NCBI GenBank assembly: GCA_029941865.1
Contig: JAPYTO010000005.1
Location: forward strand, 1 to 64,000
Direction: 5' to 3'
DNA: 64,000 nucleotides
Origin: Fuerstiella sp.
GTDB taxonomy: Bacteria; Planctomycetota; Planctomycetia; Planctomycetales; Planctomycetaceae
Part shown: in pieces, positions 21,156-37,829 of the stretch
Position numbering within the stretch: the first letter of the stretch is position 1
Layout: the number at the start of each line of letters is the position of its first letter
Position numbers and translations under genes: made by a program
The notes under the pieces: generated by a model
Told to the model about the DNA's origin: nothing
The model's input: only the letters and a program-made list of their open reading frames with translations
Databases searched by the model: none

Positions 21156-23039
21156 CTATTCTTCTGAAGAGCTGGGTGGATCTTTGTCATAGTCAGCGGC
21201 TTTGTCGGCTGCCGTCTTCTCGGCTGCCGGCTTTTCATCACCAGCGGTCGGCGTATTCACGGCCGGGGCGTCATCTGCTACGACCAGCGTTTTCGCATCT
21301 ACTGGTTTCTTGACAACGTCAGTTGCAGCAGGTGTGGCGGCGGGCTTTGCAGCAGGTTCTATCAGCACTCGCTCCCTCAGATTCTGGCCGAGCTTCAATT
21401 GCCAGATACCTGCGGCATCTTTCATCCGAATATGACGTTTTGCGATCTCGATAAGTTCGGCGTCAATGTCTGCCGCCTCGATCCAGTCTCCGACCCGCAA
21501 TTCCGGCTTCTTGTTTTCCGCCTGATTCCAGAAAAATGCGACAAGCTGGCCGTCCCGGCCAACAGCACCGGTGAATCGTGTCAATGCGGCGATGTCGTCC
21601 ATGACTTTCAGTGTCAACGTTCCGACAGCGGACATGGCCGGTTCGCCACCGTCGGTGACCTTCACCTTGATCGGGTACTCGCCGGGCGTGAACGTGCGCG
21701 GCGCGGTCCACTTCAGGATATTGCCGTCTTCGCCAAAGACCATACCTTCCGGATTATCGTCACCTTCAAGTGAGTATTTCAGATTGGCCATCGGCCCATC
21801 GTCCTGAGCAGCGACGGTTAGAATGAAGTCACGCCCCAGCACGGCGATGGCGTCAGCAGGCAGAGTGATCTCAGGCGCGTCATTCGGCAGCTTGACAGTG
21901 ATCGTAATCGTTTTTTCCACTCGCAGATCTTCGTTGTTTTTCTGCGTCAGTATGACAGTGCCTTCGTACTTCTTCGGTTCGATGTCTTCGCCTGTCGTCC
22001 ATTCCAGCTCACCCGATTCAGCATTGATCGCCATACCATCGACAGCATCTTCCAGAGCAAACACCGGCACACCGATGTCTTCATTAATGTCTTCTGCACG
22101 TGCCGTCATTTTCACGGACTCGCCGGGAGCAATCGTCTTGTCGAGGACGGACGCGATTCGCGGTTTGTAAACTCGCGGCGGAGTCGGCTTGGCAAACGGT
22201 GACGAATTCAGAAAGTTATCGTAATCAGAAAAACTCACGTTGCGCCGTCCGAAAGCGACGGGAAACAGTTGCACGCTCTCTTCAACAGTATGGGGCGCAG
22301 CAATGGTTCCCTCCTGCCCGCGTTCGACGGTCCATTTTCCGTTGTTCTCACTATCGATGGCAGTGACCTTCACCATTTCCTTGCCAACCTGAGCAAGGAA
22401 CGGTGCCTTCGTGGGGAATCCCTTAGCAGAGGTGACCGTTAGTTCCGTGTCGGTCGCAGACAGGGGTTGCGGCAGTTTTGCTCGGACAAAAACGTCGTTG
22501 CTGTCCGGGCAGCCAGCGACACTCATACCCTCTGCAGTAAGCAGAATTTCCATGCGCGGGTTCCCCTGGGAACCGGTGCTCTGGATTTCCAGGTTCGCAA
22601 TGCGATGCATCAGACCGGCCTGTTCGAACAGGTACAGAAACCGGCTGAGCCCTTCAAGATCCGTTTCTGCCTCCACATCCACGTTGACTGTCAGGTATTG
22701 GTTGCGACGATTGTCCGTCCTGCCAGGGTTCACATCCAATTGAGAAAATTTACATTGTTTCGCAAGGTTGGTGATCCAGATCTGATACAACCACTGCGCA
22801 TCGGAGATTCGTGGCGGCAGACTGGCAGCACGGCCCTGGCTGATGTGTTCTTTCGCCACCAACAGCTGCATCTGCTTCAGCTCTTCCCGCTCGTATTCGG
22901 TGGTGGCGTTGTCCAGGTTGCGTTGAGCATCGCGGACCGGTCCCATGATGACGTCGTCGACCAAAGGCCGAAGTACGCCGAGTCCAAGCACTCCTGCAAG
23001 GACCATCGCGAGTACTTTTGTACGTTGTTTATCGTCCAT
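21156..23039 (-). CDS. PilO/GspM-like inner-membrane protein with cadherin-like extension
   Basis: The 627-residue protein ends the secretion cluster. The N-terminus has one membrane helix (residues 8-26, KVLAMVLAGVLGLGVLRPLV), then a periplasmic coiled coil and ferredoxin-like domain like PilO/GspM (about 35-175, with YLTVNVDVEAETDLEGLSRF). Unusually it continues with a beta-rich part (about 190-270) and a cadherin/He_PIG-like Ig region (about 300-500, with the words IAPGESVKM and MAINAESGELEWT), then a Pro/Ala/Lys-rich acidic tail. GspM normally has about 160 residues. It lies 10 bp after the PilM-PilN-like gene, so both are translated together. I infer an inner-membrane assembly platform subunit with a long periplasmic arm. 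Confidence 0.75.
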   Translation of the reverse strand: MDDKQRTKVLAMVLAGVLGLGVLRPLVDDVIMGPVRDAQRNLDNATTEYEREELKQMQLLVAKEHISQGRAASLPPRISDAQWLYQIWITNLAKQCKFSQLDVNPGRTDNRRNQYLTVNVDVEAETDLEGLSRFLYLFEQAGLMHRIANLEIQSTGSQGNPRMEILLTAEGMSVAGCPDSNDVFVRAKLPQPLSATDTELTVTSAKGFPTKAPFLAQVGKEMVKVTAIDSENNGKWTVERGQEGTIAAPHTVEESVQLFPVAFGRRNVSFSDYDNFLNSSPFAKPTPPRVYKPRIASVLDKTIAPGESVKMTARAEDINEDIGVPVFALEDAVDGMAINAESGELEWTTGEDIEPKKYEGTVILTQKNNEDLRVEKTITITVKLPNDAPEITLPADAIAVLGRDFILTVAAQDDGPMANLKYSLEGDDNPEGMVFGEDGNILKWTAPRTFTPGEYPIKVKVTDGGEPAMSAVGTLTLKVMDDIAALTRFTGAVGRDGQLVAFFWNQAENKKPELRVGDWIEAADIDAELIEIAKRHIRMKDAAGIWQLKLGQNLRERVLIEPAAKPAATPAATDVVKKPVDAKTLVVADDAPAVNTPTAGDEKPAAEKTAADKAADYDKDPPSSSEE

Positions 23040-23049
23040 TCTATCTGCC

Positions 23050-24525
23050 TCAGGCTTTCTTCTGCTTCTTCGCCAGTTCTTTTTTTGGCGTTGGAATGCT
23101 GACTTCCAGAATCAGTTCCGTGGGATAGTTGGGATCGCGTGGATTCTGTTGAATCGGAGTCGCCGCCACTTCGTAGCCGGCATCCGTAAGTACTCGCATC
23201 AGGTCTTCGACATCGCGGGGTGATTTGGCGTAGCCTTCGGCATCGAAAGAAGCGATGTAGTCTCCCTTCCGCAGGCTGAATTTGAACTGCCTGATGAAGA
23301 CACGTTCTGTACTGCCCATGATCTGCTGAATCTTTTTTAGTTCATCCAGCCAGCTGATGTCTCGATCCGTCCATTCCGTCAGACGTTCGTCCAGCAGAAG
23401 GTCGTTCTTACCCAGCTTGTAGGCATCCTTCATGTCATCGGCTTCACCGGCCAGGGCGGTGGCTTCCTTATTCAGTGCACTGACCTTATCGGTTCGCCAT
23501 TTCCAGCCGCCGACCAGCAGCAATGTTGCGATGCCGGCGATCAGAATGGTTTTGAGCCGACGATAGTCTTTCTTTTCCGGAGTCTGCCTGGGGTTCACCA
23601 GGTCGACCGCAGCGACCGACGCTTTCTGCGAATTGGCAATCGCACCAATAGCAGCCAGCAAGTCGGACGGTACCAACCCTTCTGCCAGGTTGCCGTTGAA
23701 CAGAGTGCCTGCGGGATCGATACGAACAATTTCTGCGTCGTTCAGTCGTTTCGTGATCGAATCGGGTACCCTGGCTGAGACGTCGGGACTGCCAATCACC
23801 GTCAGACGATGGACCGCATATTTGCCGATGTCTTCAGCGGCTGCCAGGCGAGCACGTGACACTTCTGCCCTCACCGCCTGTTCGACTCCGTCCAGCGACG
23901 ACCATGACGCACCGCTGTGCGAGAAAGCAACGTTGTGCCCGGTCATGAAGATCATTTCGATGGAATCGGATCCCAGCGAAATGACAGCCTCCACGGCCTG
24001 GTTGTCGACCTTCTTCGAAAGCAGACCTGCGTGCACAACAGCGGCAGCGATGCCGAACGAGCTGACGCGAATACCAGACACTTCCAGACCGGCAACGGTC
24101 AGAGCTTTACGAACATCGTCGACGTGTTTCTGCGGCAGCGTCACCAGTAATACTTCGCGTGTCTGGGCACCTGCACTGACGGGCAGAGGCACAAAGTCCA
24201 GACCGACGGATTCCACGGGCACAGTCAGCCGTGTGGCCGCCTGCATACGCACCATGTCGGGAATTTCGTCGTCGGAAAGATTCGGCAGTTCAACGCGATT
24301 AAACGTCACTTGGTGGCGCGGAAACACAACAATTGCTTCTGTCGCAGTGACTGCGGCAGACTCAAGTGCTGTCTTCAGCATTTCGCCGAGTTCGATGGCC
24401 GTGAATTTGCCGTCTTCACGGTCAATGGCGACCGACGCGCGAACCTGCACGGATGATCCGGAAGTCGAACCAACAGCAGCGATCAAGCGGTCGCGGTCCC
24501 ATTCTATGACAAGGGTTTCAGCCAT
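23050..24525 (-). CDS. PilM/GspL-like and PilN-like fusion protein
   Basis: The 491-residue protein starts with an actin-like ATPase fold as in PilM and cytoplasmic GspL (residues 1-~280: TLVIEWDRDRLIAAVG, IVVFPRHQVTFNRVELPN, IPDMVRMQAATRL). After a short linker come a single membrane helix (about 328-343, TILIAGIATLLLVGGW) and a periplasmic PilN-like domain (about 360-490). In GspL both parts are in one chain, so this is a GspL-type arrangement with PilM-like sequence. It would connect the GspE ATPase to the periplasmic platform. The PilO/GspM-like gene follows after 10 bp; gspK is 253 bp upstream. Confidence 0.78.
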   Translation of the reverse strand: MAETLVIEWDRDRLIAAVGSTSGSSVQVRASVAIDREDGKFTAIELGEMLKTALESAAVTATEAIVVFPRHQVTFNRVELPNLSDDEIPDMVRMQAATRLTVPVESVGLDFVPLPVSAGAQTREVLLVTLPQKHVDDVRKALTVAGLEVSGIRVSSFGIAAAVVHAGLLSKKVDNQAVEAVISLGSDSIEMIFMTGHNVAFSHSGASWSSLDGVEQAVRAEVSRARLAAAEDIGKYAVHRLTVIGSPDVSARVPDSITKRLNDAEIVRIDPAGTLFNGNLAEGLVPSDLLAAIGAIANSQKASVAAVDLVNPRQTPEKKDYRRLKTILIAGIATLLLVGGWKWRTDKVSALNKEATALAGEADDMKDAYKLGKNDLLLDERLTEWTDRDISWLDELKKIQQIMGSTERVFIRQFKFSLRKGDYIASFDAEGYAKSPRDVEDLMRVLTDAGYEVAATPIQQNPRDPNYPTELILEVSIPTPKKELAKKQKKA

Positions 24526-24778: not shown

Positions 24779-26410
24779 TTACCGGTCGGAATCTGTGGGT
24801 GTGAGGATGCTGGGGTGGTAGCCGCGTCCCAGCGACGTCAGGTCACGAACGGACATAATGCGAGGCGGGTATTCCGTGGCATCAATCATGGCTTCAAGAC
24901 GCGTGCTGGGGCCGCCAGCGTCGAAGTGACCGATGGCCTGAAAACGATAAACGTCGCCACCAGTCGTGATGTACGGGCCGATGGTGCGGAGAGTTTCCAG
25001 ATCGACGAGTCCTTCTGCCAGTATCCACGCCGCCGTGTTGTGGCGTGCCGTCATATTAGACGAGGAACTCTGCAGATCAATGGGTGGTCTCGCCCCGAGA
25101 ATCGAATCCGGCAGATCTGCAGGAATATCGAAACCCAACCCCGGCAGCACCGTCAGGACTTCCAGACGAGCCTGGTTGATGTTGATCCGGCCCTCGACGT
25201 AAGCGTCGTCTGTGGTGGTCAGCATTTTCTCCAGGTCGGGGAATACGTTCAGCAACACGCTGCTGTCTTCCGGCCACGGGCTTTCAAAGGACTGATCCAC
25301 GCCGGTGAGCATTTTGGTTGCATTGGAAGGGCCACCGATCAGTTGGTAAATCGAAGTGAACTGATACGTGGACACAACGGTCAGATCAATGTCGTTTCGC
25401 GAGATCTGGTCCTGAATTCCGGATTCCGCGGCTGGAGTACCGGGCGTCATGTATTCGGTCCCCGCCAGACGTATCGCGACGATATAGCTGGCGGCTTCTG
25501 CTCCGAACTCCTCTTCTATGGCATCGTACAGTTCGGTCATTTCGCCCATATTGATGTTGATTTTTTCTTCCCCATCAGGCGTTGTGTTTCGTTCACGACT
25601 GCGAGCAGTGAGGTAATCTTTCCAGCCCAGGTCCAGAATGCCATCGGCATTGTCAAAGGGGAGCGTTTGTTCGCCGTCGTTCTCGTTGGCGTCCAGTATT
25701 CCGTTGTGGTTCGCGTCCTCTCCATAAAACAGATCCGGCGTGACTCCCTGGACCTTCAGCAACTCGTCAATGGAATCCATCGGGCCGTTCTTGCAGGGAT
25801 AGGGAACGCTGAGTCCTTCGTATTCGTTGGATTCCGCACCGCCGGGGCGGCGATCTTCATCAGTATCCAGCCAGTCCAGAATGGCGTCGATGATATCATC
25901 TGTCATATTCGGAATACTGGACGTTGCCATATATACCAGGCCCAGCCGTTCTTCTTCCGGCAGCAACTGTTCCAGTGTGTCCAGTTCCAGCAGTCGGTTG
26001 ATGTTGAACTTGGCGTTCTCGTTGCCCAGACCGAAACGAATACCTCCCGCTGACGAGTTGGATTCGTCCGGTGCGATGATCGTGTAACGAACACGTCCCC
26101 GATCGACCGAGGAATCCCGCAGCAACTGCCCTCGAAAGACGTCCGGATCGTTATACAAATCGACGGTGTCGTCGTAATCGCGTTCCAGAATGCGGGTCGC
26201 CGCATATTCAATGGCGGATTCCGCAGCGGTGCGAGCTGTGACATCGCGACCACCCATGGCGGCCGCTTCGTGTTCCACCAGCATTGTGCCCGAATAGTTG
26301 TAAGCCGCCAGCGACAGCAGCACGATGGCGATGGTGACGACCGCCAGTACGAAGCCACGGCGTGGCTGGTATTCCGTTGCGGAGTCGTAAGTTGCAGCGT
26401 TTCGTTTCAT
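24779..26410 (-). CDS. gspK: type II secretion minor pseudopilin GspK-like
   Basis: The 543-residue protein has a class III (prepilin-like) signal: basic start, then R-R-G followed by FVLAVVTIAIVLLSLAAYN. The residue normally Glu at +5 is Val, as is typical for GspK, which caps the pseudopilus tip. The rest has alpha-rich repeats with helix-hairpin-helix-like NININ/INRLLELD segments, and a Ca2+-type acidic insert (DANHNGILDANENDGEQ) around 240. It is longer than GspK in Proteobacteria (about 330). It overlaps gspJ by 4 bp and lies after it. Processing needs a prepilin peptidase, which is not in this window. Confidence 0.8.
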   Translation of the reverse strand: MKRNAATYDSATEYQPRRGFVLAVVTIAIVLLSLAAYNYSGTMLVEHEAAAMGGRDVTARTAAESAIEYAATRILERDYDDTVDLYNDPDVFRGQLLRDSSVDRGRVRYTIIAPDESNSSAGGIRFGLGNENAKFNINRLLELDTLEQLLPEEERLGLVYMATSSIPNMTDDIIDAILDWLDTDEDRRPGGAESNEYEGLSVPYPCKNGPMDSIDELLKVQGVTPDLFYGEDANHNGILDANENDGEQTLPFDNADGILDLGWKDYLTARSRERNTTPDGEEKININMGEMTELYDAIEEEFGAEAASYIVAIRLAGTEYMTPGTPAAESGIQDQISRNDIDLTVVSTYQFTSIYQLIGGPSNATKMLTGVDQSFESPWPEDSSVLLNVFPDLEKMLTTTDDAYVEGRININQARLEVLTVLPGLGFDIPADLPDSILGARPPIDLQSSSSNMTARHNTAAWILAEGLVDLETLRTIGPYITTGGDVYRFQAIGHFDAGGPSTRLEAMIDATEYPPRIMSVRDLTSLGRGYHPSILTPTDSDR

Positions 26411-27315
26411 AACGCGGTCTCCCCAACGTATGGCGTGCAGACAGGAAGCGGCACAACCAGTCGGTGCACGGTATCCTGCAGTGCTCCCACGGTTTCCGCG
26501 AGATTGCGGTCGTCATTTTCATCCTGAACGACTGTCAGTGTCAATTCAATGATGATCGCCAGCGGCATTGCATTCTGAGCCGTACTGTCCCATTCCGTCA
26601 GGTAATCGACTCCGTCAAAGTATTCGAACTTCAACGCCGCCACTTCCGGGGCCAGCAGTGCGGTGGCCGCCAGCTGCATTCCCATGTCGCCCTGATTGAT
26701 GGCCGTGCTGAGTCCGATAAGATCGCCCTGCATACGAGCCAGCCCTTCCGACGGCCCGGATAGCGTGGCGTTCGAAGCTGCGAATTCTCCGCCCAGGCTG
26801 CTGCCACCTTCCCGTGCCATCAGGTATCGCACGACCAATGCGTCGCTGCTGCGATCTGTGGGCAACATCAACTCCTGAGCACTGATGTAATCCTGATCAC
26901 GATCCGGACGGCTGATGTACAACACCAGATCGGAGTCGGAACCAAATAGGCCGTTGGTGTAGCTCGCCATCGCCGTATCGGCATCGACATCGTCCGTCTG
27001 GTCGTCGTCTTCTTCGGACGTACTCAATTCCTCTTCGACAAAAGTACACGACTGAATGTCACGAGCCATCTGACGCAGCACGGCTCTGGCGATCTGAGCT
27101 CGTTCGATTTCGTCATAACTTTCTGTCGCGGTCGTCCAGTACACGGACATCGCCGTGTACAGAGCGGCCATCAACAGTGTGGTCAGTCCGGTGGCCAGCA
27201 GAACTTCCAGCAGAGTGAAGCCGTGTGTGCGGGATACAGGAACCTCGCTGCCGCGCGGCCCGATGGGCACGCGGTTAAACGAATAATCGGTTCGATTTCG
27301 TCTACACGAATTCAT
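26407..27315 (-). CDS. gspJ: type II secretion minor pseudopilin GspJ-like
   Basis: The 302-residue protein carries a prepilin signal at residues 30-54: R-T-H-G before FTLLEVLLATGLTTLLMAAL, with Glu at +5 of the mature chain. The following domain is poorly conserved, with an acidic loop (SEEDDDQTDDVDADTA) and a C-terminal strand region. GspJ, GspI and GspK form the pseudopilus tip in the type II system. An N-terminal basic extension of about 30 residues precedes the signal. The ATG overlaps the gspI stop by 4 bp. Confidence 0.78.
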   Translation of the reverse strand: MNSCRRNRTDYSFNRVPIGPRGSEVPVSRTHGFTLLEVLLATGLTTLLMAALYTAMSVYWTTATESYDEIERAQIARAVLRQMARDIQSCTFVEEELSTSEEDDDQTDDVDADTAMASYTNGLFGSDSDLVLYISRPDRDQDYISAQELMLPTDRSSDALVVRYLMAREGGSSLGGEFAASNATLSGPSEGLARMQGDLIGLSTAINQGDMGMQLAATALLAPEVAALKFEYFDGVDYLTEWDSTAQNAMPLAIIIELTLTVVQDENDDRNLAETVGALQDTVHRLVVPLPVCTPYVGETAL

Positions 27316-27797
27316 TCTTCGGCCTCCGCTTCTTCAGCCGCCATGGCTGCGTCCAGAAACAGCTGCGGATCTCGCATCAGACGGACCAGCAGGAACGCCG
27401 AATTGGGCAATTGCTCGGCAATCACGTGTTCCACTCGGACGCTGATCAGCAACAGACTTTCCCCCGGGCCTTCTTCCACGGTGACCGAATACCGCCAGTT
27501 TTCACTGTCTGTAAACGGCTGGTTGGATTCCGACGTCAGTGGGCTGATTCCGGAAACGAGTTCGCCCATCAGGCTCTCACACCGCAGGGCGGCTTCCGAA
27601 TCCAGTTTCGCGCTCAGCCGAGAATCATGGCCCACACGCATCACCTGCAGAATAGCGGTCAATGACCCCATGAAGATCGCAGTGGCCAGCAGCACTTCCA
27701 GCAGCGTGATCCCTGAACGGCCGGCGTTGTTCACGCCGGCAGCAGAAGACAACCCACGTGTTCTGCGTTCAGAAGACTTGCCTGTGGACAGCTTCAT
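27312..27797 (-). CDS. gspI: type II secretion minor pseudopilin GspI-like
   Basis: The 161-residue protein has a prepilin-type segment around 28-48 (R-S-G then ITLLEVLLATAIFMGSLTA), with Glu at +5. The soluble part (about 50-161) is short, as in GspI. It overlaps gspJ by 4 bp and touches gspH by 1 bp (TGATG), so these three are translationally coupled. A Glu-rich C-terminal tail (EAEAEE) ends the chain. Confidence 0.78.
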   Translation of the reverse strand: MKLSTGKSSERRTRGLSSAAGVNNAGRSGITLLEVLLATAIFMGSLTAILQVMRVGHDSRLSAKLDSEAALRCESLMGELVSGISPLTSESNQPFTDSENWRYSVTVEEGPGESLLLISVRVEHVIAEQLPNSAFLLVRLMRDPQLFLDAAMAAEEAEAEE

Positions 27798-28399
27798 CAG
27801 TCTTCCTCCTGATAAACCTGCGACGTGCGAGCAGTTCCGGTGATGCCGCGCAATGCGATTTTTGAGGTGAGTCCTTCTTTGTCGGACACCCTAAATACGA
27901 AATCGTCGGCCATCCCGTCAAAACGAAACATGATCGGTCGGGACCAGGTTTTTCGCGCCAGTTCACTGCCGCCGAGTGATCCGAACCGTTCGGGGTCGAG
28001 AGTTTCTGACAGTTCGTCGACGCCGTCGTCGGCTCTCAAACGCATGTCGTCAGACAGCACATCCAACAGACGCACATATTCTTCAGTTGTTGTACTTCTG
28101 CTGCCGGAATCGTCGAGATTCAATTCGCTTTCGGACGGAAGAACGACCATGGCCGGACCGTTGAGTTCATACCGAAACTCGTAGTCAATGCCTGTGTCGA
28201 CCGCAAACTGCCTGGTCTGTCCCAAAGTCTCACGCACTCGGTCGGCCGCTTCAAAGACGGTACTCTCACGAATCATCGACATCAGTTGCGGTGCTGCCAT
28301 GGCTGAGATCATGGCCAGAATCGCAAGCACGATCATCAATTCCATCAGCGAAAAGCCACCTGGGTGGCGTGTCTGATGGGAATGATGGAATCGTTTCAT
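27797..28399 (-). CDS. gspH: type II secretion minor pseudopilin GspH-like
   Basis: The 200-residue protein has a prepilin signal at about 12-36 (P-G-G before FSLMELMIVLAILAMISAMA), with Glu at +5. The mature part has the GspH-like beta-sandwich pattern (RVRETLGQTRQFAVDTG, then ELNGPAMVVLPSESE). It follows the major pseudopilin gene after 164 bp that hold a hairpin and a repeat, so expression relative to gspG may be set by that gap. Confidence 0.78.
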   Translation of the reverse strand: MKRFHHSHQTRHPGGFSLMELMIVLAILAMISAMAAPQLMSMIRESTVFEAADRVRETLGQTRQFAVDTGIDYEFRYELNGPAMVVLPSESELNLDDSGSRSTTTEEYVRLLDVLSDDMRLRADDGVDELSETLDPERFGSLGGSELARKTWSRPIMFRFDGMADDFVFRVSDKEGLTSKIALRGITGTARTSQVYQEED

Positions 28400-28563: not shown

Positions 28564-29025
28564 CTACTCTATGTCACGTCGCAGGTTGCTGACGTCGTCA
28601 GTTGAATGACTTCCGTTGCCGTCTTCACCGTCCGGACCAAACGACCAGATCTTTGGTTTCAGGTCGCCGGAATCGTAGGAAACCTGAAACTCGTGGTTCC
28701 ATGCGTCCATTGGAAGTTCTTCCAGCAGCGGCTGCTGTTGCTGCCCAAGACTGTCTTCCCATTGCTCAGTCAACGCCTGAATGTCCGCCGATCCGCCTTG
28801 TATGTCAAAGACACCGTTGTTCTTGACAGCCTTCCGCTTGAACGCATCTTCGATCGTCTTAATTGTCGTCCGAGTGGTCATGATGTTGGCGTCCTGCTGG
28901 CTGCTGAGCAGATTGGGCGCCACCATAGCCGCGATGGCGACAATAATGGCCAGTACGATCAACAGCTCAAGCAGCGTAAAACCGGAGCGACGACTGGATG
29001 GTTGGCGTCGTTTCATTGTCTTCAT
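28564..29025 (-). CDS. gspG: type II secretion major pseudopilin GspG
   Basis: The 153-residue protein is the major pseudopilin. The prepilin signal is R-R-S-G followed by FTLLELLIVLAIIVAIAAMV, with Glu at +5, and the domain keeps the GspG pattern: NLLSSQQDANIMTTRTTIK helix, then MDAWNHEFQVSYDSGD and KIWSFGPDGEDG near the end, a Ca2+-loop-like region. The ribosome site AAAGGACAACAG is strong. A GGGCC hairpin lies upstream at about 29050-29064. Sub-unit repeats of this protein extend the piston-like pseudopilus. Confidence 0.9.
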   Translation of the reverse strand: MKTMKRRQPSSRRSGFTLLELLIVLAIIVAIAAMVAPNLLSSQQDANIMTTRTTIKTIEDAFKRKAVKNNGVFDIQGGSADIQALTEQWEDSLGQQQQPLLEELPMDAWNHEFQVSYDSGDLKPKIWSFGPDGEDGNGSHSTDDVSNLRRDIE

Positions 29026-29408: not shown

Positions 29409-30620
29409 TCAGCGAACGCTGGACATGTTCAGAATCGGCAGCAACAGAGCCGCGATCACGAAGGTCACAACGGCCGCCATGATTAATAACAGGAAGGGTT
29501 CCAGCAGTCGCACGATTACGTCGATCTTGCGGCTGGTGTATTTTTCCAGATTGTCGGCAATGCCGATCAATACGTTTTCCAGGTTGTTCGCTTCTTCTCC
29601 AATAGAAATCATTTCCACGATTTCGTTTGAAAACTGCCCGCTGGCACGCAGCGGAATGGCAAGTGATTTACCGCCGGAAACGCTGTCCGCAGCGTTTCCA
29701 ATCGCTTCGCTCAGCACTACGTTACCGCTGGCGTCCTTGGCAATCCGCAACGACTGCAGAATCGGCACGCCGTTACCCAGCAAAGTCCCCAGCATGCGAC
29801 AGAAACGAGCGACGGCAAGATTCCGAACGATGGGTCCCAGCCCCGGGGCTTTCAGCTTCCACTGATCGATTTTGTCCTGAGCCTCTTTTGATTCTGAGAC
29901 GTAGTAGAACAAGCCGGCAACCCCGCCGACCAAAGCCGGCAGGATGACGTACCACCATTTCTGCAGGCTCTCACTGAACGACATCAAGGTCGTCGTGGCC
30001 CACGGCAGTTTCCCCTGCTCCTCCATGCGACCGAAAATCTGGGCGAACTCGGGTACGAACCAGACCAGCAGCACCGTGATGATGATGGAACCGACGCCCA
30101 TCAAAAACAGCGGGTACACCATGGCTCCGGTGACCTTGCCTTTTAGCTCTTCCTGATGGTCATTGAAGGCGGCGACTCGGGCCAGCACATCTTCCAGAAA
30201 ACCACCCTCTTCACCCGCCCTGACCATGCTGGCCGTGAGGCTGTTGAACGCCTTGGGGTGCCGCCGCATGGCTTCGTTCAGTCGAGTACCGTCGGCTACC
30301 TGCTCACGGATATCCTGCACGACAAACCGCAATGCTGCATGCGACGTCTGATCTTCCAGTAACTGCAACGATCGCAGCAGTGGAACACCGGAACGCAGCA
30401 GGTCGGACAGCTGGTTATAGAACGTCGTCAGATATCGTCCGGGGACGCGTCGTGATCCGGTGACAACCTGTCGTCGTGTCGCTTCGGACATTCCGACTTT
30501 GATTGGAAACAGACTCTGCGTCTGCAGAGCCACCAGCGCATCTTTTTCGCTGCCGGCAGTTAACGTTCCCGTTACCTGCTTTCCGGAGAGTTCTCTGGCG
30601 GTGTAATCGAAATCCGGCAT
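29409..30620 (-). CDS. gspF: type II secretion inner-membrane protein GspF
   Basis: The 403-residue platform protein has two GspF domains, each with helices, and membrane segments at about 170-192 (YPLFLMGVGSIIITVLLVWF), 222-240 and 370-395 (LLIMAAVVTFVIAALLLPIL). The N-terminal MPDFDYTARELSGKQVTG is typical of the family, as are LSDLLRSGVPLLRSLQLLEDQ and the paired FCRMLGTLLGNGVPILQSL. GspF couples GspE ATP hydrolysis to pseudopilus assembly. It lies downstream of gspE after about 150 bases. Confidence 0.92.
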   Translation of the reverse strand: MPDFDYTARELSGKQVTGTLTAGSEKDALVALQTQSLFPIKVGMSEATRRQVVTGSRRVPGRYLTTFYNQLSDLLRSGVPLLRSLQLLEDQTSHAALRFVVQDIREQVADGTRLNEAMRRHPKAFNSLTASMVRAGEEGGFLEDVLARVAAFNDHQEELKGKVTGAMVYPLFLMGVGSIIITVLLVWFVPEFAQIFGRMEEQGKLPWATTTLMSFSESLQKWWYVILPALVGGVAGLFYYVSESKEAQDKIDQWKLKAPGLGPIVRNLAVARFCRMLGTLLGNGVPILQSLRIAKDASGNVVLSEAIGNAADSVSGGKSLAIPLRASGQFSNEIVEMISIGEEANNLENVLIGIADNLEKYTSRKIDVIVRLLEPFLLLIMAAVVTFVIAALLLPILNMSSVR

Positions 30621-30772: not shown

Positions 30773-32458
30773 TCAGGCGATAATATCCCCGCGAGTAATT
30801 CTGACCACTTCTTCCACGCTGGTTCCGCCTTCCATGACTCGTTCCCAGCCGCTGTCTCGCAGCGTTGCCATGCCATGTGCGATCGCGTATTTTCGGATCT
30901 TGTTCGCACTCTCGTTTTCAGCGCACATCTCCTTAAGCACTGGATCTATGGTCAGCAGCTCAAAAACACCGGTTCGACCTGCGTAGCCCGAGTCGCTGCA
31001 TTCCCGGCATCCGACCGGTTCGTAGATGAATTCCGGACGTTCTTCGGGAAAGTCTGCCGGCAGATCCAGTGAATCGGTCGCGACCTTACGTTTGCAGTCC
31101 GAACAAAGGCGACGGACCAGACGCTGAGCCAGAACGCCCTCTACGGTGCTGGCCACCAGGTACGGTTCGACACCCATGTCCACCAGTCGCGTAAAAGCGC
31201 TGGGAGCATCGTTGGTGTGCAGTGTACTGAAGACAACGTGCCCCGTCAGCGATGCCTGGATGGCTGCCTGACCGGTTTCGCCATCGCGAATTTCTCCAAT
31301 CAGCACAACGTCCGGGTCGTGCCGCAGGATACTGCGAAGTCCGGCGGCGAAGGTCAGTCCGATCTTGCTGTGAACCTGAATCTGACTGATCCCGTCCATC
31401 TGATATTCCACCGGATCTTCGACAGTGATGATCTTTGTATGCGGGTTCTTGATTTCATTCAAGGCGCTGTACAGCGTTGTGGATTTACCGCTACCGGTGG
31501 GACCTGTCACCAGGATGATTCCATGCGGCAGAGCAATGAGCTCCCGAAAGCGTTTGATGATTGTCGGCGGCATGCCGACATTCTTCAGGTCAAAGGTCAT
31601 CTTGTCCTTGTCCAGCAGACGCATGACCACGCCTTCGCCGTGTGTCATGGGAATGATGGACACACGTACGTCGACTTCCCGACCGGACACCCGCAGCTTG
31701 ATACGACCGTCCTGCGGCAGTCGCTTTTCTGCAATGTTCAGATGTGACATGATTTTCAGTCGAGTCACGATGGCCGAATAGAAATGGTTAATTTCGATCG
31801 GCACAGACTGAATTCGCAGCATTCCGTCGATGCGGTAACGAACTCGCAGGGCATGTTCCTGAGGTTCGATGTGAACGTCACTGGCCTGCATTTTGACGGC
31901 TTCGATCAGCAGTTCGTTCACCAGTCGGATGACAGACGGTGCCTGAGCTCCTTCGGCCAGTTCGCCGTAGTCCTCCTCAATGTCTTCAAGAAGTTCAATG
32001 TCTTCTTCGCTGCGTTGGCGAACCAGTTCGTTGATCGTGTCGCCGCCAACACCCAGCAGCTCGCGAATACGGTTGCCCAGTTCATTGCGTCGAGTCAGAA
32101 CAGGTTCCAGACGCAGACCGCTGACAGTCCCGAGCTCATCGATTCCCTCCAGATTGAGCGGGTCATCTGTGGCGACGACAACGTGTCCATTCTGGCGGTA
32201 GAGTGGCAGTAATGAGTGGCGATAAATCGCCGATGTCGGGAACTGGTTGAGCAGTTCAATATCAATTTCGACGTCATTGAGATCGACGTACTCCATCCCG
32301 AATTCATCGGCCAGCAATCGCAGCACGGCGTCTTCGGTCACCAACCCCATTTTGATCAAAGTCTGATCAATGCGATCGTCGTCCTGTTCACTCTTCGCCA
32401 GCCCCAGCTGTTCCGAAGTGATCAGACCTTCATCAACAAATAATTGTCCGAGTTCCAT
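30773..32458 (-). CDS. gspE: type II secretion assembly ATPase GspE
   Basis: The 561-residue hexameric ATPase powers pseudopilus assembly. An N-terminal N1E-like domain (about 1-150) precedes the NTPase core. Visible motifs are Walker [10 protein letters not shown] at 319-327, the Asp box and Walker B ([17 protein letters not shown]), and His box [13 protein letters not shown] four-cysteine zinc motif is present near 455-500 (LCSDCKRK and [11 protein letters not shown]), as in GspE of Gram-negative type II systems. The start is ATG at 32458 with a poor ribosome site. The GspD-like gene lies upstream after 130 bp. Confidence 0.93.
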
Positions 32459-32588: not shown

Positions 32589-35500
32589 CTATCGGCCGCC
32601 TGGACGGCCACCACCAGCACCACCAGCACCGCGTCCGCCGCCTGGCGTCCCACCACCGCCAAATCCTCCTCGACCGCCTGACGCTCCACCACCGCCAAAT
32701 CCTCCTCGACCGCCACCCGTTCCGCCACCACGTCCGCCGCCTGCACCGCCGCCTGCACCGCGAATCCGTTCCTGAATCGCTCTGTTGATGGCATCCTGCT
32801 GCGGATTGCTGCCGGGACGCGACTGGCCGCCGGAGGCTCCGGAACCGCTCGCTCCGGAACCACTCGCTCCGGACGACGTTCTGGTCGACGAAGCACTGAC
32901 CGAAACTCGCGGCAGCAGATTTGTCAGCACCTGCTGAATCAATAACGGATCAGCGTTCTTCAGCTGAATCGGACGAACCATTCTATTCGCGGATTTTGCA
33001 CGGTCATCCAGTCCGCGAACCACAAATTCCACTTCATCAAACAATGCCAGACTGCTGCTGACCAAAAGTGTGCTGGTCTGAGCATCAACGCCCAACGTCA
33101 TACGAACCTTACTCGCGGCGTCGTCCCCTCCTCGTCCACCACCGCCACCAAACACGGCCGCCAGTGGATTCTGTTGCTGCTGACGGTTCTGCCCCTGAGC
33201 CTCAAGGTATGGCTTGAAAACATCTCCCAACAACGAGGCAACATCATTGACATCGGCGTGTTCCACCATGATGGCCCGCGGTTGCATGTCTTTCAGAGAA
33301 TCCGGCACGTCGTTGGAATCAAGAACTCTCAGAAAGGCCAAAGCGTCCTTGACCATCATCTGAGGTCCGGAGATAAACAGTGAGTTGGTCCGGAGATCCG
33401 GAATGATTTTCATCGTAGACGAGCTGACCCCCAGACCGCTGAGGCCGGTCATGTCCATCAGACTGCTGCCCATAGAAGAAAAGCTGCTGCCCAGACTCCC
33501 GAGCATGCTGCCGCCGATGGCACTGCTGCTGGATGCCACGGAGCTGCTGGGAAAAAACTGCGACAACATGTCGGCCGCTTCTGTCGCATCTGCAGATTCA
33601 AGGTACACGACCGTCCATTCCGGCTTGAACGGGATCGACTGCTGCAGTTCGTCCAGCAGGTCTTCCAGACGATCCAGCTGCGCTTCGTCTCGCGATGACA
33701 GAATCAGTTCGTCGCCGTATACAATGATGTCCACATCACCAAAGGTGCGGGACTGTCGGTCCTGCCGCCGGCCGCCCGATGAGGCCCGTGGTTCATCGGA
33801 CTGCGTGGGGTATGGTGACCTCACAGGAATAAATCGTTCCGCCGGTTGGGTGGAAAACTCTGATTCACCACGACTGGATGCGGTGGCAGCTGGCCGAGCC
33901 GCCCGCCAACGGCTGTCGGAAATCATGTTACGTGACGACGGAAACGCTCGCTGTGACAGCGGGGCATCGACCGGTTCGTTACCTTGTCGTTGAGCTTCAG
34001 GAGGTGGCTCCGGCTCCTCACCGAATTCTCCCGTGCTGGTCCGCCGACTGCGAATTGGTCCCGGGTTTTCTGGAATGACGATGTTGATCTTCGTCCCTTC
34101 CTGAGCCTCCCATGCCTGCTGCAGAATTTTGATGAAGTCGTCCGGATTGCGGCCCTGCATAGAGAAGCGTCGCACGGTGCCACCATCAGTTCGCTGTCGT
34201 ATGCCAGTGCCATCTTCGCCCAGATCTGCCAGCACCTGCTTGATTTGCGTAATATGTTCAATACTGCCGCGAACAATTAATCGGCGACCGTACAGATCGG
34301 TTTCAATCGTCGGGGCGTCTGCGCCGTCAGCCAGAAACAGAGAACGCAGCGTTGCGGCCGCAGAAAGCGGATCCATCTGGGCCAACGGGATCACAGCCAC
34401 AGAACCGATGCTGCCACCTCCATCCAGTTGACGAATCAAGGAGGCCACTTCCTGATGCTGACGTTCGGTGGCCATGATGTGAATCCGTCCGGTGCGACGG
34501 TCTTCGTTCACAACCTGGACACCGGGGACATTCATCGCCGTCAGTGTTTTTGTGACTTCGCCGGCATCAGCAGACTTCACCTGATAAACCTCAAGATATG
34601 TGCCCTTGCGTCCTCTCGCCAGCGGATCTCCATTCGGAGTTTCATTAACATCCAGCGTTTCAATGATTGTCGCTACCAGTTCATGTTGCTTGGCCGTACC
34701 CGTCACCAGCAGGCTGTTTAACCGCAGATCCGCGGCAACCTGGATTTCCGGTTCTGCCTTTGCAGGTGTTGCAGGAGTCTGACCACGGCTAAACGCCTGA
34801 CTGCGTGCCTGAGCCCGAGATCGTTCTTCCGCACTGACGCTGACGTTGGCCACGTTTTGTCGCATGCCAAACTGAGTCATCACCGCGATTTCCGCTTCCT
34901 CAGCATCCATGTATCGCAGATGGTAGGCCGTAAAAATCAGAGCATCGGGCTTTGACTTGGCCATTGCTGCTGTCAGCAAACCGTGAATCCGACGCAGGTT
35001 GGCTCCGATGTCCGTGACGATCAGAATCTTCGATTCCGTCAAGGCAATCAGACTGCCCATTGGTCCCAGAAGTGCTTCGACTTCCTGAGCAGCACGACCG
35101 GCGTCCAGTTCGTCCACGGCGATGGTGACATTGACCAGTTCGTTGTCGCCCACGACAAGTTCGTCGCCGATCTTCAACAATGCATCGGCATCGACATCGG
35201 GAATCAGGCTGGGCGGAATCCCGTTGTCCCCGTTCAGGACGATCAGGAAATTGTCCTTCTGAACCATGGCATACCCCTTACGCAGCAGGTAACCATTCAT
35301 CACGTCCAGCGCTTGCTTGGACGTATATATGTTGTCGTCGATATGACTGAATGTGCCTGGAGGAACTGTTGTCAGGTCCAGAGTCAGGTCGGATCCGTCG
35401 GCAAACATCTGCAACACCTGATCCCACGGGGCATAGCGAAAGTTGAATGTGAATTCTTCAACCAACTGCCTTTCGCCAGGCACAACGCTGCCACCGAAAC

Positions 35501-36242
35501 TGGCGACGGACTCCTCTCCGGGAGGAGGCTCATTCATGGGGGCCCGCGGTGTGTCACCCTGTGGCGTATTCCCGCCTGCCGCATCGGTTCGTTCAGCGAC
35601 CGCTTCTTCCTGTGGTTTTGGTGCCTGAGACAATTCCTTTTCAAACCGAGACTTTTGATCCGCCGTCAGCACGGAGGTAAATTTCGCCCGCCACTGCTCA
35701 TTGAACGTGTCCCGTTCTTCTTCGGACGCATCAAAGCCCAGTGCACGTGAGGCCGTACGTTGAGCACTGCTGAGTTCGGTGATCTTTTTGACCTGCTCTT
35801 CGCTGAGACCATAATCTTTTGCTAAAGCTTCGTTCGCCAGACCGCGTGGCCCGGCATTCGTGAGATACAACCCTCGAAGTGACTTGCGCTGAGAATCCTG
35901 AAGGATGGTCAGGGCGTTGTCCTGAAAGACGGTTCTGGCCTTGATGATGGCCTGGCCGAACTCTTCGCGGATTTTTGCCTTTTCTTCATCCGTCTCAGCA
36001 GCTTCCAGCTTCTTTCGGTTCTCCTCAAACTGATCGCGAGTCGTCTGTGACGACGCCTGCAGTTCCTGCAGTTTCTTCGACTGTTCTTCAGACAGTCCCA
36101 GTTCCTGGTGAACTTCCTCACGCCGCAGAAGATCCGTTTCTGAACCACCCCGACTACGCTGCGCCGATGCTTCCGAACCGAACGAAAGAACCAGGCCCAG
36201 AATCATCAGGCGGTGGGTTGTTTTGAGATCAAACATAGCCAT
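32589..36242 (-). CDS. GspD-like protein made of secretin N-domains, no visible secretin barrel
   Basis: The 1217-residue protein has a signal peptide (MAMFDLKTTHRLMILGLVLS, cleavage near EASA), then a charged helical LTXXQ/Spy-like region (about 30-210, ELGLSEEQSKKLQELQ and a second repeat), then repeated alpha/beta secretin N-domains: FNFRYAPWDQVLQMFADGS near 275, LRLNSLLVTGTAKQHELV, VYQVKSADAGEVTKTLTAM, LYGRRLIVRGSIEHITQI, LRTNSLFISGPQMMVKDA and STLLVSSSLALFDEVEF. I find no canonical secretin domain motif (VPxLGDIPxxGxLF) and the chain ends in a Gly-rich tail (about 1140-1217) coded by ~39-bp tandem repeats. ATG 36242 has AAGG upstream; the longer frame is not needed. It starts the T2SS operon. 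Confidence 0.85.
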   Translation of the reverse strand: MAMFDLKTTHRLMILGLVLSFGSEASAQRSRGGSETDLLRREEVHQELGLSEEQSKKLQELQASSQTTRDQFEENRKKLEAAETDEEKAKIREEFGQAIIKARTVFQDNALTILQDSQRKSLRGLYLTNAGPRGLANEALAKDYGLSEEQVKKITELSSAQRTASRALGFDASEEERDTFNEQWRAKFTSVLTADQKSRFEKELSQAPKPQEEAVAERTDAAGGNTPQGDTPRAPMNEPPPGEESVASFGGSVVPGERQLVEEFTFNFRYAPWDQVLQMFADGSDLTLDLTTVPPGTFSHIDDNIYTSKQALDVMNGYLLRKGYAMVQKDNFLIVLNGDNGIPPSLIPDVDADALLKIGDELVVGDNELVNVTIAVDELDAGRAAQEVEALLGPMGSLIALTESKILIVTDIGANLRRIHGLLTAAMAKSKPDALIFTAYHLRYMDAEEAEIAVMTQFGMRQNVANVSVSAEERSRAQARSQAFSRGQTPATPAKAEPEIQVAADLRLNSLLVTGTAKQHELVATIIETLDVNETPNGDPLARGRKGTYLEVYQVKSADAGEVTKTLTAMNVPGVQVVNEDRRTGRIHIMATERQHQEVASLIRQLDGGGSIGSVAVIPLAQMDPLSAAATLRSLFLADGADAPTIETDLYGRRLIVRGSIEHITQIKQVLADLGEDGTGIRQRTDGGTVRRFSMQGRNPDDFIKILQQAWEAQEGTKINIVIPENPGPIRSRRTSTGEFGEEPEPPPEAQRQGNEPVDAPLSQRAFPSSRNMISDSRWRAARPAATASSRGESEFSTQPAERFIPVRSPYPTQSDEPRASSGGRRQDRQSRTFGDVDIIVYGDELILSSRDEAQLDRLEDLLDELQQSIPFKPEWTVVYLESADATEAADMLSQFFPSSSVASSSSAIGGSMLGSLGSSFSSMGSSLMDMTGLSGLGVSSSTMKIIPDLRTNSLFISGPQMMVKDALAFLRVLDSNDVPDSLKDMQPRAIMVEHADVNDVASLLGDVFKPYLEAQGQNRQQQQNPLAAVFGGGGGRGGDDAASKVRMTLGVDAQTSTLLVSSSLALFDEVEFVVRGLDDRAKSANRMVRPIQLKNADPLLIQQVLTNLLPRVSVSASSTRTSSGASGSGASGSGASGGQSRPGSNPQQDAINRAIQERIRGAGGGAGGGRGGGTGGGRGGFGGGGASGGRGGFGGGGTPGGGRGAGGAGGGRPGGR

Positions 36243-36698
36243 CAAGTAGACCTTGAGGTTGTGGCAGGCTTGTGAAGTCCAGGAAGAATATCCAACAGGC
36301 GGAACCCCGTGGAAACGCACAAAGAGTCTGTATAGTTTACAGAATCGACCCAGATTCAGAGTATTCTTCGGCAGGAGTAGGGCGATGCAAGCGAATTGGG
36401 CAACCTACGTGGAAGTTGTCGGTTGTGACGGTTGGCGAGTGTGAGAATCTACCATCGCGCGACGGTGTGTAGTTCTCAAAATCCCCTCGTCCCCGTGTTT
36501 GCTGCCGAAATTCTTGCTGTTTTCTCCAGACAGTCCGATACTCCAAAACGTTGCAAGTGTTTACGAACTGCAGCCAGCATTCGCTGAATTGCGAACACAA
36601 GAGGCCGATGTGCCCTTGGCTGCCTCTGGTGTGTTTTACGTAAGTCCATTCAGGTAAATAGCTTATACGTTCCGTATTGGTTTTCTTTGGGCAGCCAC
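36243..36698. other. divergent intergenic region between the GspD-like and EF-hand genes
   Basis: A 456-bp gap that must hold promoters for both genes. It has no repeat or clear operator. AAGG lies upstream of the GspD-like start. A TTATAC box at about 36662-36667 could be a -10 for the EF-hand gene, without a clear -35. Confidence 0.45.
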
Positions 36699-37829
36699 AT
36701 GAAACGATCATTCGCATTTGTCGCCGTAGTATTAGTGGTAATTCTGCTGGCACCGGCCGCTCCCTCACAGGACCGGCGTGATGGTGGCGGTCGAGGTCGC
36801 GGCGGGTTTGGAGGCGACAGAGGTGATCGTGGGCAGGGTGGCGGCGAACGCGGTCGTCCTTCTGGCGGTGCCACTCGAGGCGGCTTCGGCGGGGGGCAAC
36901 CCGGTAGTGGTGGTACTCGAGGCGGCTTTGGCGGCGGACAACCCGGTGGCGGTGATCGAACCCGTGGCGGCTTTGGCGGTGGCCCTCCCGGTGGCGGTGA
37001 TCGAACTCGTGGCGGCTTTGGCGGTGGATCTCCCGGTGGTGGCGATCGAGGCGGTCGTCCGACGTTAGACGGCAACGGCGACGGTCGCATTGACCAGAAC
37101 GAAATCAATCAGATGTCCGATCAGATGAAGCAATTCATGCAATCACGCGGCATCACCATTCGACCGGGCATGTCAATGGACGACTTTCGTAACAACATGC
37201 GAGAACAATTCAGCCGTGGCGGCGAAGGCGGTCGTGGTGGCGATCCTCAGGCCCGTAACCGCGGCCAGAATGGCGTGCTTAGTCCCTTCCGGCCTCGCAC
37301 GAAAGATCGAATGACGGTGGACCTGCCGCCCAAGTACAGCGAACTGGATATCGACTACGACGGTCAGATCGGACTTTACGAATGGATTACTGCCCGACGC
37401 GAGTCCCTCAGCCAGTTTGATCAGATGGACCTGAACTTTGACGGGATACTGACTCCGTCAGAGTTGTTGGTCTATGACGAAGTCCTGGCCAGCGGCGAAC
37501 CCAAAGTTACGTCCTACAAACGCGAACGAATCACAATCGTCGGTGGCGGCGGCAGCACGCGGTCCACAGGTTCCGCCGCGATCCGCCTGGGTGGCTCAGC
37601 AAAAGCCAGCAAGCCTTCCGCGGAAGAAGTGCAAAAGCACGCAGCCACGGCCAAACGCTATTTTGCCAGCATGGACAAGAACGGCGATGGAAAGATCGGG
37701 GAAGACGAATGGGCGCAAAGCCGTCGTCTGAAACCGTGGTTCGAAAAGGCGGGCATCAAGCTCACCACGATGTCGGAGTCTGATTTTGCGGGAAAGTTCG
37801 CCATCGCGATGAAATCCGTGGGCAAATAG
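36699..37829 (+). CDS. exported EF-hand protein with glycine-rich repeats
   Basis: The 376-residue protein has a signal peptide (MKRSFAFVAVVLVVILLAPA, cleavage near PSQ), an Arg/Gly-rich segment (about 26-120) built from repeats of TRGGFGGG-PGGGDR coded by 36-39-bp tandem repeats, then four EF-hand-type calcium loops: DGNGDGRIDQNEI, DIDYDGQIGLYEW, DLNFDGILTPSEL and DKNGDGKIGEDEW. The first and last keep all acidic positions. The Gly-rich part resembles the tail of the divergent GspD-like protein. Function is unknown; I infer a Ca2+-responsive extracytoplasmic protein, possibly tied to the secretion cluster. ATG 36699 is preferred over the TTG at 36687 because the signal peptide starts there. 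Confidence 0.85.
   Translation: MKRSFAFVAVVLVVILLAPAAPSQDRRDGGGRGRGGFGGDRGDRGQGGGERGRPSGGATRGGFGGGQPGSGGTRGGFGGGQPGGGDRTRGGFGGGPPGGGDRTRGGFGGGSPGGGDRGGRPTLDGNGDGRIDQNEINQMSDQMKQFMQSRGITIRPGMSMDDFRNNMREQFSRGGEGGRGGDPQARNRGQNGVLSPFRPRTKDRMTVDLPPKYSELDIDYDGQIGLYEWITARRESLSQFDQMDLNFDGILTPSELLVYDEVLASGEPKVTSYKRERITIVGGGGSTRSTGSAAIRLGGSAKASKPSAEEVQKHAATAKRYFASMDKNGDGKIGEDEWAQSRRLKPWFEKAGIKLTTMSESDFAGKFAIAMKSVGK

What the first reader, a model, noticed from the sequence alone, without database searches (positions are those of the whole stretch)
32589..36242. GspD-like protein without a recognisable secretin barrel at the head of a type II secretion operon
Every inner-membrane and pseudopilus component is present (E, F, G, H, I, J, K, L, M-like), but the GspD-like gene encodes only repeated secretin N-domains, preceded by an LTXXQ/Spy-like helical region and ended by a glycine-rich tail. 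The pore-forming C-domain, with its conserved end motif, is not visible. The system may use a separate pore protein, or act as a pseudopilus or adhesion machine in the planctomycete envelope rather than a standard secretion channel.
Basis: partly seen in the sequence, partly recalled or inferred. Interest (0 to 1): 0.75.

Follow-up and report, generated by a model that had tools for sequence, protein, structure and literature searches.

The report
Secretion channel made from two proteins
In this planctomycete the long channel protein of a type II secretion machine appears to be cut into two genes: this one seems to make only the inner stack of rings, while the outer-membrane pore is encoded far away in the genome.

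Summary
Window 36242-32589 (minus strand, 1217 aa) heads a T2SS operon (E to M-like) and has secretin N-domains but no Secretin barrel: no PF00263 hit, no barrel in an AlphaFold model of its C-terminal half, and no barrel attached in any of about 79 relatives. The pore is not missing. The genome has a complete GspD, 1326 aa, on contig C4. In four same-family genomes its ortholog is the last gene of the operon whose first gene is the ortholog of our protein. Barrel and GspE trees agree. Two other planctomycete families encode one giant GspD. In one (f3) its N-terminal half matches our protein, its C-terminal half the barrel protein, and a glycine-rich linker joins them; our protein ends in the same kind of tail. 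One genome has the halves as tandem genes. Best reading: a split secretin, with our protein as its inner-membrane-side ring stack. Co-assembly is inferred, not shown. New variant of a known kind.

The parts
32589..36242 (-). N-domain-only secretin protein (proposed inner half of a split GspD), 1217 aa
36159..36242 (-). Sec-type signal peptide, residues 1-28
   Evidence: sequence by eye (MAMFDLKTTHRLMILGLVLSFGSEASA|Q)
35628..36140 (-). LTXXQ/Spy-like helical domain, residues ~35-205
   Evidence: stand-alone homologues beside gspE in two relatives
35232..35456 (-). N0 domain, residues 263-337
34206..35138 (-). four N1-type ring-building domains, residues 369-679 (AlphaFold; the home-made HMM finds three of them)
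33633..34175 (-). fifth N1-type domain interrupted by a ~115-residue disordered insertion, residues 690-870
   Evidence: model
32994..33626 (-). two further N1-type domains, residues 873-1083; a partial motif follows to 1148
32592..32762 (-). glycine-rich tail, residues 1161-1217 (67% Gly), counterpart of the Gly-rich linker inside the fused f3 giant GspD
30773..32458 (-). gspE ATPase (MshEN + T2SSE)
29409..30620 (-). gspF
28564..29025 (-). gspG major pseudopilin
27797..28399 (-). gspH-like pseudopilin (N_methyl)
   Evidence: gene order
27312..27797 (-). gspI-like pseudopilin (weak N_methyl)
   Evidence: gene order
26407..27315 (-). gspJ-like pseudopilin
24779..26410 (-). gspK
   Evidence: T2SSK_1st
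23050..24525 (-). gspL/PilM-like
21156..23039 (-). gspM-like protein with inserted Ig-like (He_PIG) domains and a C-terminal small beta domain that may be GspC-HR/PilP-like
   Evidence: HR assignment weak

Best explanation
It is one half of a split T2SS secretin. This gene encodes the inner-membrane-side module of GspD (a Spy-like cap, the N0 domain and about seven N1-type ring domains). The outer module (further N1-type rings plus the outer-membrane barrel) is a separate protein, in this genome at contig C4:69499-73479 (minus strand), followed by a conserved lipoprotein gene that is a candidate pilotin. Shown: no barrel in this protein; a cognate barrel GspD exists elsewhere; in relatives both genes lie at the two ends of one operon; other families carry both as one fused chain, joined in f3 by a Gly-rich linker, and one genome carries them in tandem. 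Inferred: the protein is exported, forms stacked rings, and docks end to end under the barrel protein (Gly-rich end towards it), so that two chains line one long conduit across the wide planctomycete periplasm, with N0 meeting the assembly platform and the pseudopilus running inside. The Spy-like cap may act as a chaperone or substrate guard at the entrance (guess).
For: (1) Pore found: the C4 protein has Secretin E 1.3e-42 and passes the TIGR02517 GspD cut-off, 383 against 351 bits. (2) Linkage: in G010, G014, G016 and G020 (same family) the order is N-only, E, F, G, H, I, J, K, L, M, barrel GspD, and the barrel is the ortholog of C4 (36-44% identity). (3) The barrel tree puts C4 with those operonic barrels (SH-aLRT 99) and apart from the second system's barrels; the GspE tree gives the same grouping (97). 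(4) Fused counterpart: families f3 and f4 (five genomes) have a single GspD of roughly 2200-3270 aa. In f3 the N-only profile fits the N-half (E 2.2e-76; C-half 2.5e-12) and the barrel chain's N-domains fit the C-half (1.1e-63; N-half 4.7e-21). (5) The f3 halves are joined by a Gly-rich stretch (61-67% Gly); the N-only proteins of the window's family end in Gly-rich tails (25-67%), often ...GGR. (6) G031's second system has K-L-M-[N-only 941 aa]-[barrel 1079 aa]-lipoprotein in tandem. (7) Second T2SS of this genome (C75): N-only giant first, barrel without N0 last, one operon. (8) In the f4 tandem system, f5, f6, f7 and C75 no N0 was detected on the barrel chain, while the N-only protein has one. 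(9) gspE is the next recognised gene in 46 of 60 scorable relatives. (10) AlphaFold and Foldseek: GspD-type N-domains.
Against: In the window's own family the barrel chain carries an N0 of its own, forming a separate divergent clade, so the C4 protein could in principle work alone, with this protein as an accessory. No interaction, stoichiometry or expression was measured. Gene dispersal (C4 is unlinked in this genus) weakens the operon argument for this genome alone. For the f4 giants the N-only profile fits the N-terminal part (E 5.6e-38) but without clean one-to-one domain register, because of repeat expansion. The genome holds three N-only proteins, so exact pairing is not unique. No GspC was identified; the HR-like domain on the M-like protein is only weakly supported.
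Confidence: 0.72

Rival explanations
1. Accessory paralogue: a duplicated GspD that lost its barrel and now acts beside a self-sufficient C4 GspD (assembly scaffold, gate, substrate receptor or Spy-like chaperone at the channel mouth) without being part of the wall of the conduit.
For: The C4 barrel protein has its own N0 and seven N1 domains; the Spy-like domain suggests a chaperone role; three N-only proteins exist in one genome.
Against: The fused giants place this module in line with the barrel, and in five other lineages an N0 is found only on the N-only chain, so there it must serve as channel base if N0 does its usual job.
Confidence: 0.18
2. A pseudopilus or adhesion machine that has no outer-membrane channel.
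For: No barrel gene on contig C5, which holds the operon, appeared in the whole-genome PF00263 search.
Against: The orthologous barrel closes the same operon in close relatives and is retained, with its lipoprotein neighbour, where it has moved; the trees agree.
Confidence: 0.05
3. The N-only protein works with another pore in the genome (second-system barrel on C75, the C326 or C6 secretins, or the large secretin on C231) rather than with C4.
For: Five barrel genes exist in the genome.
Against: C75 has its own N-only partner in its operon; C326, C6 and C231 are in other contexts; the C4 clade alone tracks this operon in linkage and in trees.
Confidence: 0.05

Closest known systems
T2SS secretin GspD/PulD/XcpQ (TIGR02517, PF03958 + PF00263)
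   Same: N0 and N1-type domains, signal peptide, gene beside gspE in a T2SS operon
   Different: No barrel; about seven N1-type domains instead of three; Spy-like N-terminal domain; Gly-rich tail; barrel on another polypeptide
Mitochondrial GspD plus GspDN1-3 of jakobids, heteroloboseans and malawimonads (PMC8134430)
   Same: Secretin N-domains encoded apart from the barrel; GspD-GspDN1 interaction seen by yeast two-hybrid
   Different: Eukaryotic; very short single-domain pieces; the mitochondrial barrel protein lacks the N region, whereas here each half keeps a long stack of rings; no sign that the two splits are related
Giant single-chain planctomycete GspD (families f3 and f4 here, roughly 2200-3270 aa)
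   Same: In f3 the N-terminal half is collinear with this protein up to the Gly-rich linker
   Different: One chain with the barrel attached; gene at the end, not the head, of the operon
Spy/LTXXQ periplasmic chaperones (PF07813)
   Same: Helical N-terminal region matches Spy weakly
   Different: Below the Pfam cut-off here; fused to secretin N-domains

Membership tests
GspD secretin (complete) | Secretin C-domain barrel PF00263 | tested here: not met
   No hit at E<=1; no barrel in the model
GspD secretin (complete) | TIGR02517 equivalog cut-off 351 bits | tested here: not met
   124 bits; the C4 protein passes with 383
GspD secretin N-module | N0 plus repeated N1-type domains (PF03958), T2SS gene context | tested here: met
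   context
Type II secretion system | ATPase E, platform F, L, M, pseudopilins G to K | tested here: met
   H, I and J partly by order and N_methyl motif only; M weak
Type II secretion system | Outer-membrane secretin cognate to the system | tested here: met
   In trans on contig C4; linkage in relatives
Type II secretion system | GspC with HR domain bridging to N0 | tested here: inconclusive
   No separate gspC recognised; C-terminal domain of the M-like protein matches GspC HR only at E 0.9 and PilP at 0.07
Split secretin (barrel and N-module as two cooperating chains) | The two chains correspond to halves of one fused homologue | tested here: met
   2x2 profile comparison and Gly-rich junction
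Split secretin (barrel and N-module as two cooperating chains) | Physical co-assembly in one channel | not testable with these tools
   Needs biochemistry or tomography

The most novel reading that the evidence does not exclude
Planctomycetes build very long secretin conduits modularly: separately encoded, stackable ring modules (one to three N-only proteins per genome) are combined with a barrel module, so that channel length could be set by which module is used to match a variable, very wide periplasm.
Probability: 0.3. Interest if true: 0.85.

Novelty: new variant of a known kind. Interest (0 to 1): 0.58.

Why it matters
Secretins are thought of as single-chain channels from base to pore. 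A bacterial T2SS whose base and pore are two gene products, with fused, tandem, operonic and dispersed versions in related genomes, gives a natural series for testing how N-rings assemble, what N0 must be attached to, and how a secretion channel spans an unusually wide periplasm. It also parallels the split GspD of mitochondria. In practice, annotation that looks only for barrels next to gspE will call these systems incomplete.

Tried and rejected
Frameshift, truncation or assembly artefact: rejected, the 64 complete relatives are all barrel-less. Barrel hidden in the C-terminal half: rejected by Pfam and AlphaFold. One-domain BLAST assignment of giant domains to single positions: too noisy in the repeat-expanded giants, replaced by profile-profile comparison of halves. 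HR domain of GspC on the M-like protein: the sequence search gave only weak hits and spurious designed-propeller matches, left open. Origin of the barrel-chain N0: the N0 tree shows a separate clade on a long branch; direction of fission or fusion not resolved. Literature: no held paper describes planctomycete N-only GspD. Mahajan et al. 2020 (doi 10.1093/gbe/evaa159), which from memory reports extended periplasmic segments of T2SS outer-membrane proteins in Planctomycetales, is not held, so prior description cannot be excluded. One genome search failed and was repeated on named handles.

Full report
Observation. The gene lies on the minus strand, 36242 to 32589. Pfam finds five Secretin_N stretches and no Secretin domain; LTXXQ is seen below its cut-off. 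NCBIfam GspD reaches 124 of the 351 bits needed. AlphaFold, run in two halves on 72-74 homologues, gives a helical domain (residues about 35-205), an N0 fold, and seven N1-type domains, the fifth interrupted by a disordered insertion of about 115 residues; there is no barrel. pTM is 0.39 for both because the chain is flexible, so only the domain level is used. Foldseek matches are GspD, PulD, XcpQ and T3SS secretins. The Spy-like assignment has support from a PDB profile match (E 3.9e-5) and from free-standing LTXXQ proteins beside gspE in G027 and G028.

Where is the pore? The same genome has PF00263 in five genes. On C4 there is a 1326-aa protein with N0, seven N1 domains and a barrel that passes the GspD equivalog cut-off. 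No GspE match lies on C4. On C75 there is a second, complete T2SS operon: an N-only giant (broken into two frames by a 100-N assembly gap), E, F, G, H, I, J, K, L, M, a barrel GspD without N0, and a lipoprotein gene. C326, C6 and C231 are other secretin types by context.

Is C4 the partner of this operon? The window's family appears to be Planctomycetaceae: named relatives carrying the N-only protein include Fuerstiella, Gimesia, Thalassoglobus, Planctomicrobium and Schlesneria. In the window's genus and in G008, G011 and G018 the barrel gene lies elsewhere; in the closed genomes the separation is about 0.4 Mb (G008), 1.9 Mb (G004, around the circle) and 2.5 Mb (G011). The barrel tree places C4 among these (SH-aLRT 99) and the GspE tree mirrors it (97); the C75 system forms its own clade in both. 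A small lipoprotein-like gene (by eye: signal peptide with a lipobox cysteine) follows the barrel gene in most of these genomes whether it is operonic or relocated, so barrel and lipoprotein move together. It has no Pfam match. A pilotin role is a guess.

Are the two proteins halves of one? Families f3 (G025, G030, G034) and f4 (G031, G035) carry a single giant GspD with barrel. In f3 the domain layout is N0, three N1, gap, two N1, Gly-rich linker, then a run of N1 and the barrel. The first part is the layout of the window protein. Profile comparison as a two-by-two test: N-only against f3 N-half E 2.2e-76 and against the C-half 2.5e-12; barrel-chain N-domains against the C-half 1.1e-63 and the N-half 4.7e-21; f5 proteins behave alike (1.2e-59 against 1.2e-10; 8.4e-52 against 8.3e-11). 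The alignment of N-only to the giant ends at residue 1054 of 2291, at the end of the Gly-rich linker (954-1053 is 63% Gly), and the N-only proteins of the window's family end in Gly-rich tails, commonly ...GGR. G031 also has a second T2SS with K, L, M, N-only (941 aa), barrel (1079 aa, no N0) and lipoprotein in tandem; in G032 N-only, barrel with lipoprotein, and E-to-M lie in three places. So fused, tandem, operon-ends and dispersed layouts all exist.

Mechanism. Shown: gene content, co-inheritance, homology of the halves. [quoted passage not shown] Inferred: the window protein forms the inner ring stack with its N0 towards the inner membrane and its Gly-rich end towards the barrel chain, giving a two-chain tube. 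Planctomycetes have an enlarged, variable periplasm, with crateriform outer-membrane structures in contact with the cell membrane (PMC5394234); any link between those structures and this system is speculation. The main weakness is that in this family the barrel chain has its own N0, of a separate divergent clade, so it might stand alone.

Known or new? Mitochondrial T2SS-like systems split GspD into a barrel and GspDN pieces, and GspD and GspDN1 interact by yeast two-hybrid (PMC8134430). I found no description of a bacterial counterpart in the held library. The most relevant paper, Mahajan et al. 2020, is not held, so the elongated planctomycete GspD is probably known and the split may be too. 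I rate this a new variant of a known kind.

Noticed in passing
G000:C75 (loci L017, L027): Second T2SS operon in the same genome with an N-only protein carrying about 25 secretin N1-type domains over ~2,190 aa (two frames separated by a 100-N assembly gap), plus its own barrel GspD without N0.
   Followed up: partly
L023:9769-12357 (-), G000:C93: Third N-only secretin protein (862 aa, N0 + five N1) with no T2SS genes beside it; homologues of similar size recur in many relatives.
   Followed up: partly
L019:8553-9458 (-); L027:12233-13279; L152:4244-4840: Conserved lipoprotein-like gene without Pfam match directly after the barrel gspD (motif RGF(A/G)G(Q/R)), operonic or relocated; candidate pilotin.
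   Followed up: partly
window 21156-23039 (-): GspM-like protein with inserted Ig-like (He_PIG/cadherin) domains and a small C-terminal beta domain that may correspond to the GspC HR/PilP domain.
   Followed up: partly
L020:6545-10477 (-), G000:C231: Unusual ~1310-aa secretin with a long repeat-rich N-terminal region and Gly/Gln-rich insertions inside the Secretin domain, not T2SS-linked.
   Followed up: no
L041:11934-12731 (-) and L038:1399-2187 (+): Free-standing LTXXQ/Spy-like proteins encoded beside gspE in two other families, the same domain that is fused to the N-only protein in the window.
   Followed up: partly
window 36687-37829 (+): Divergently oriented secreted protein with long Gly-rich repeats and what look like EF-hand-type motifs (DxDxDG, by eye), next to the operon head.
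   Followed up: no
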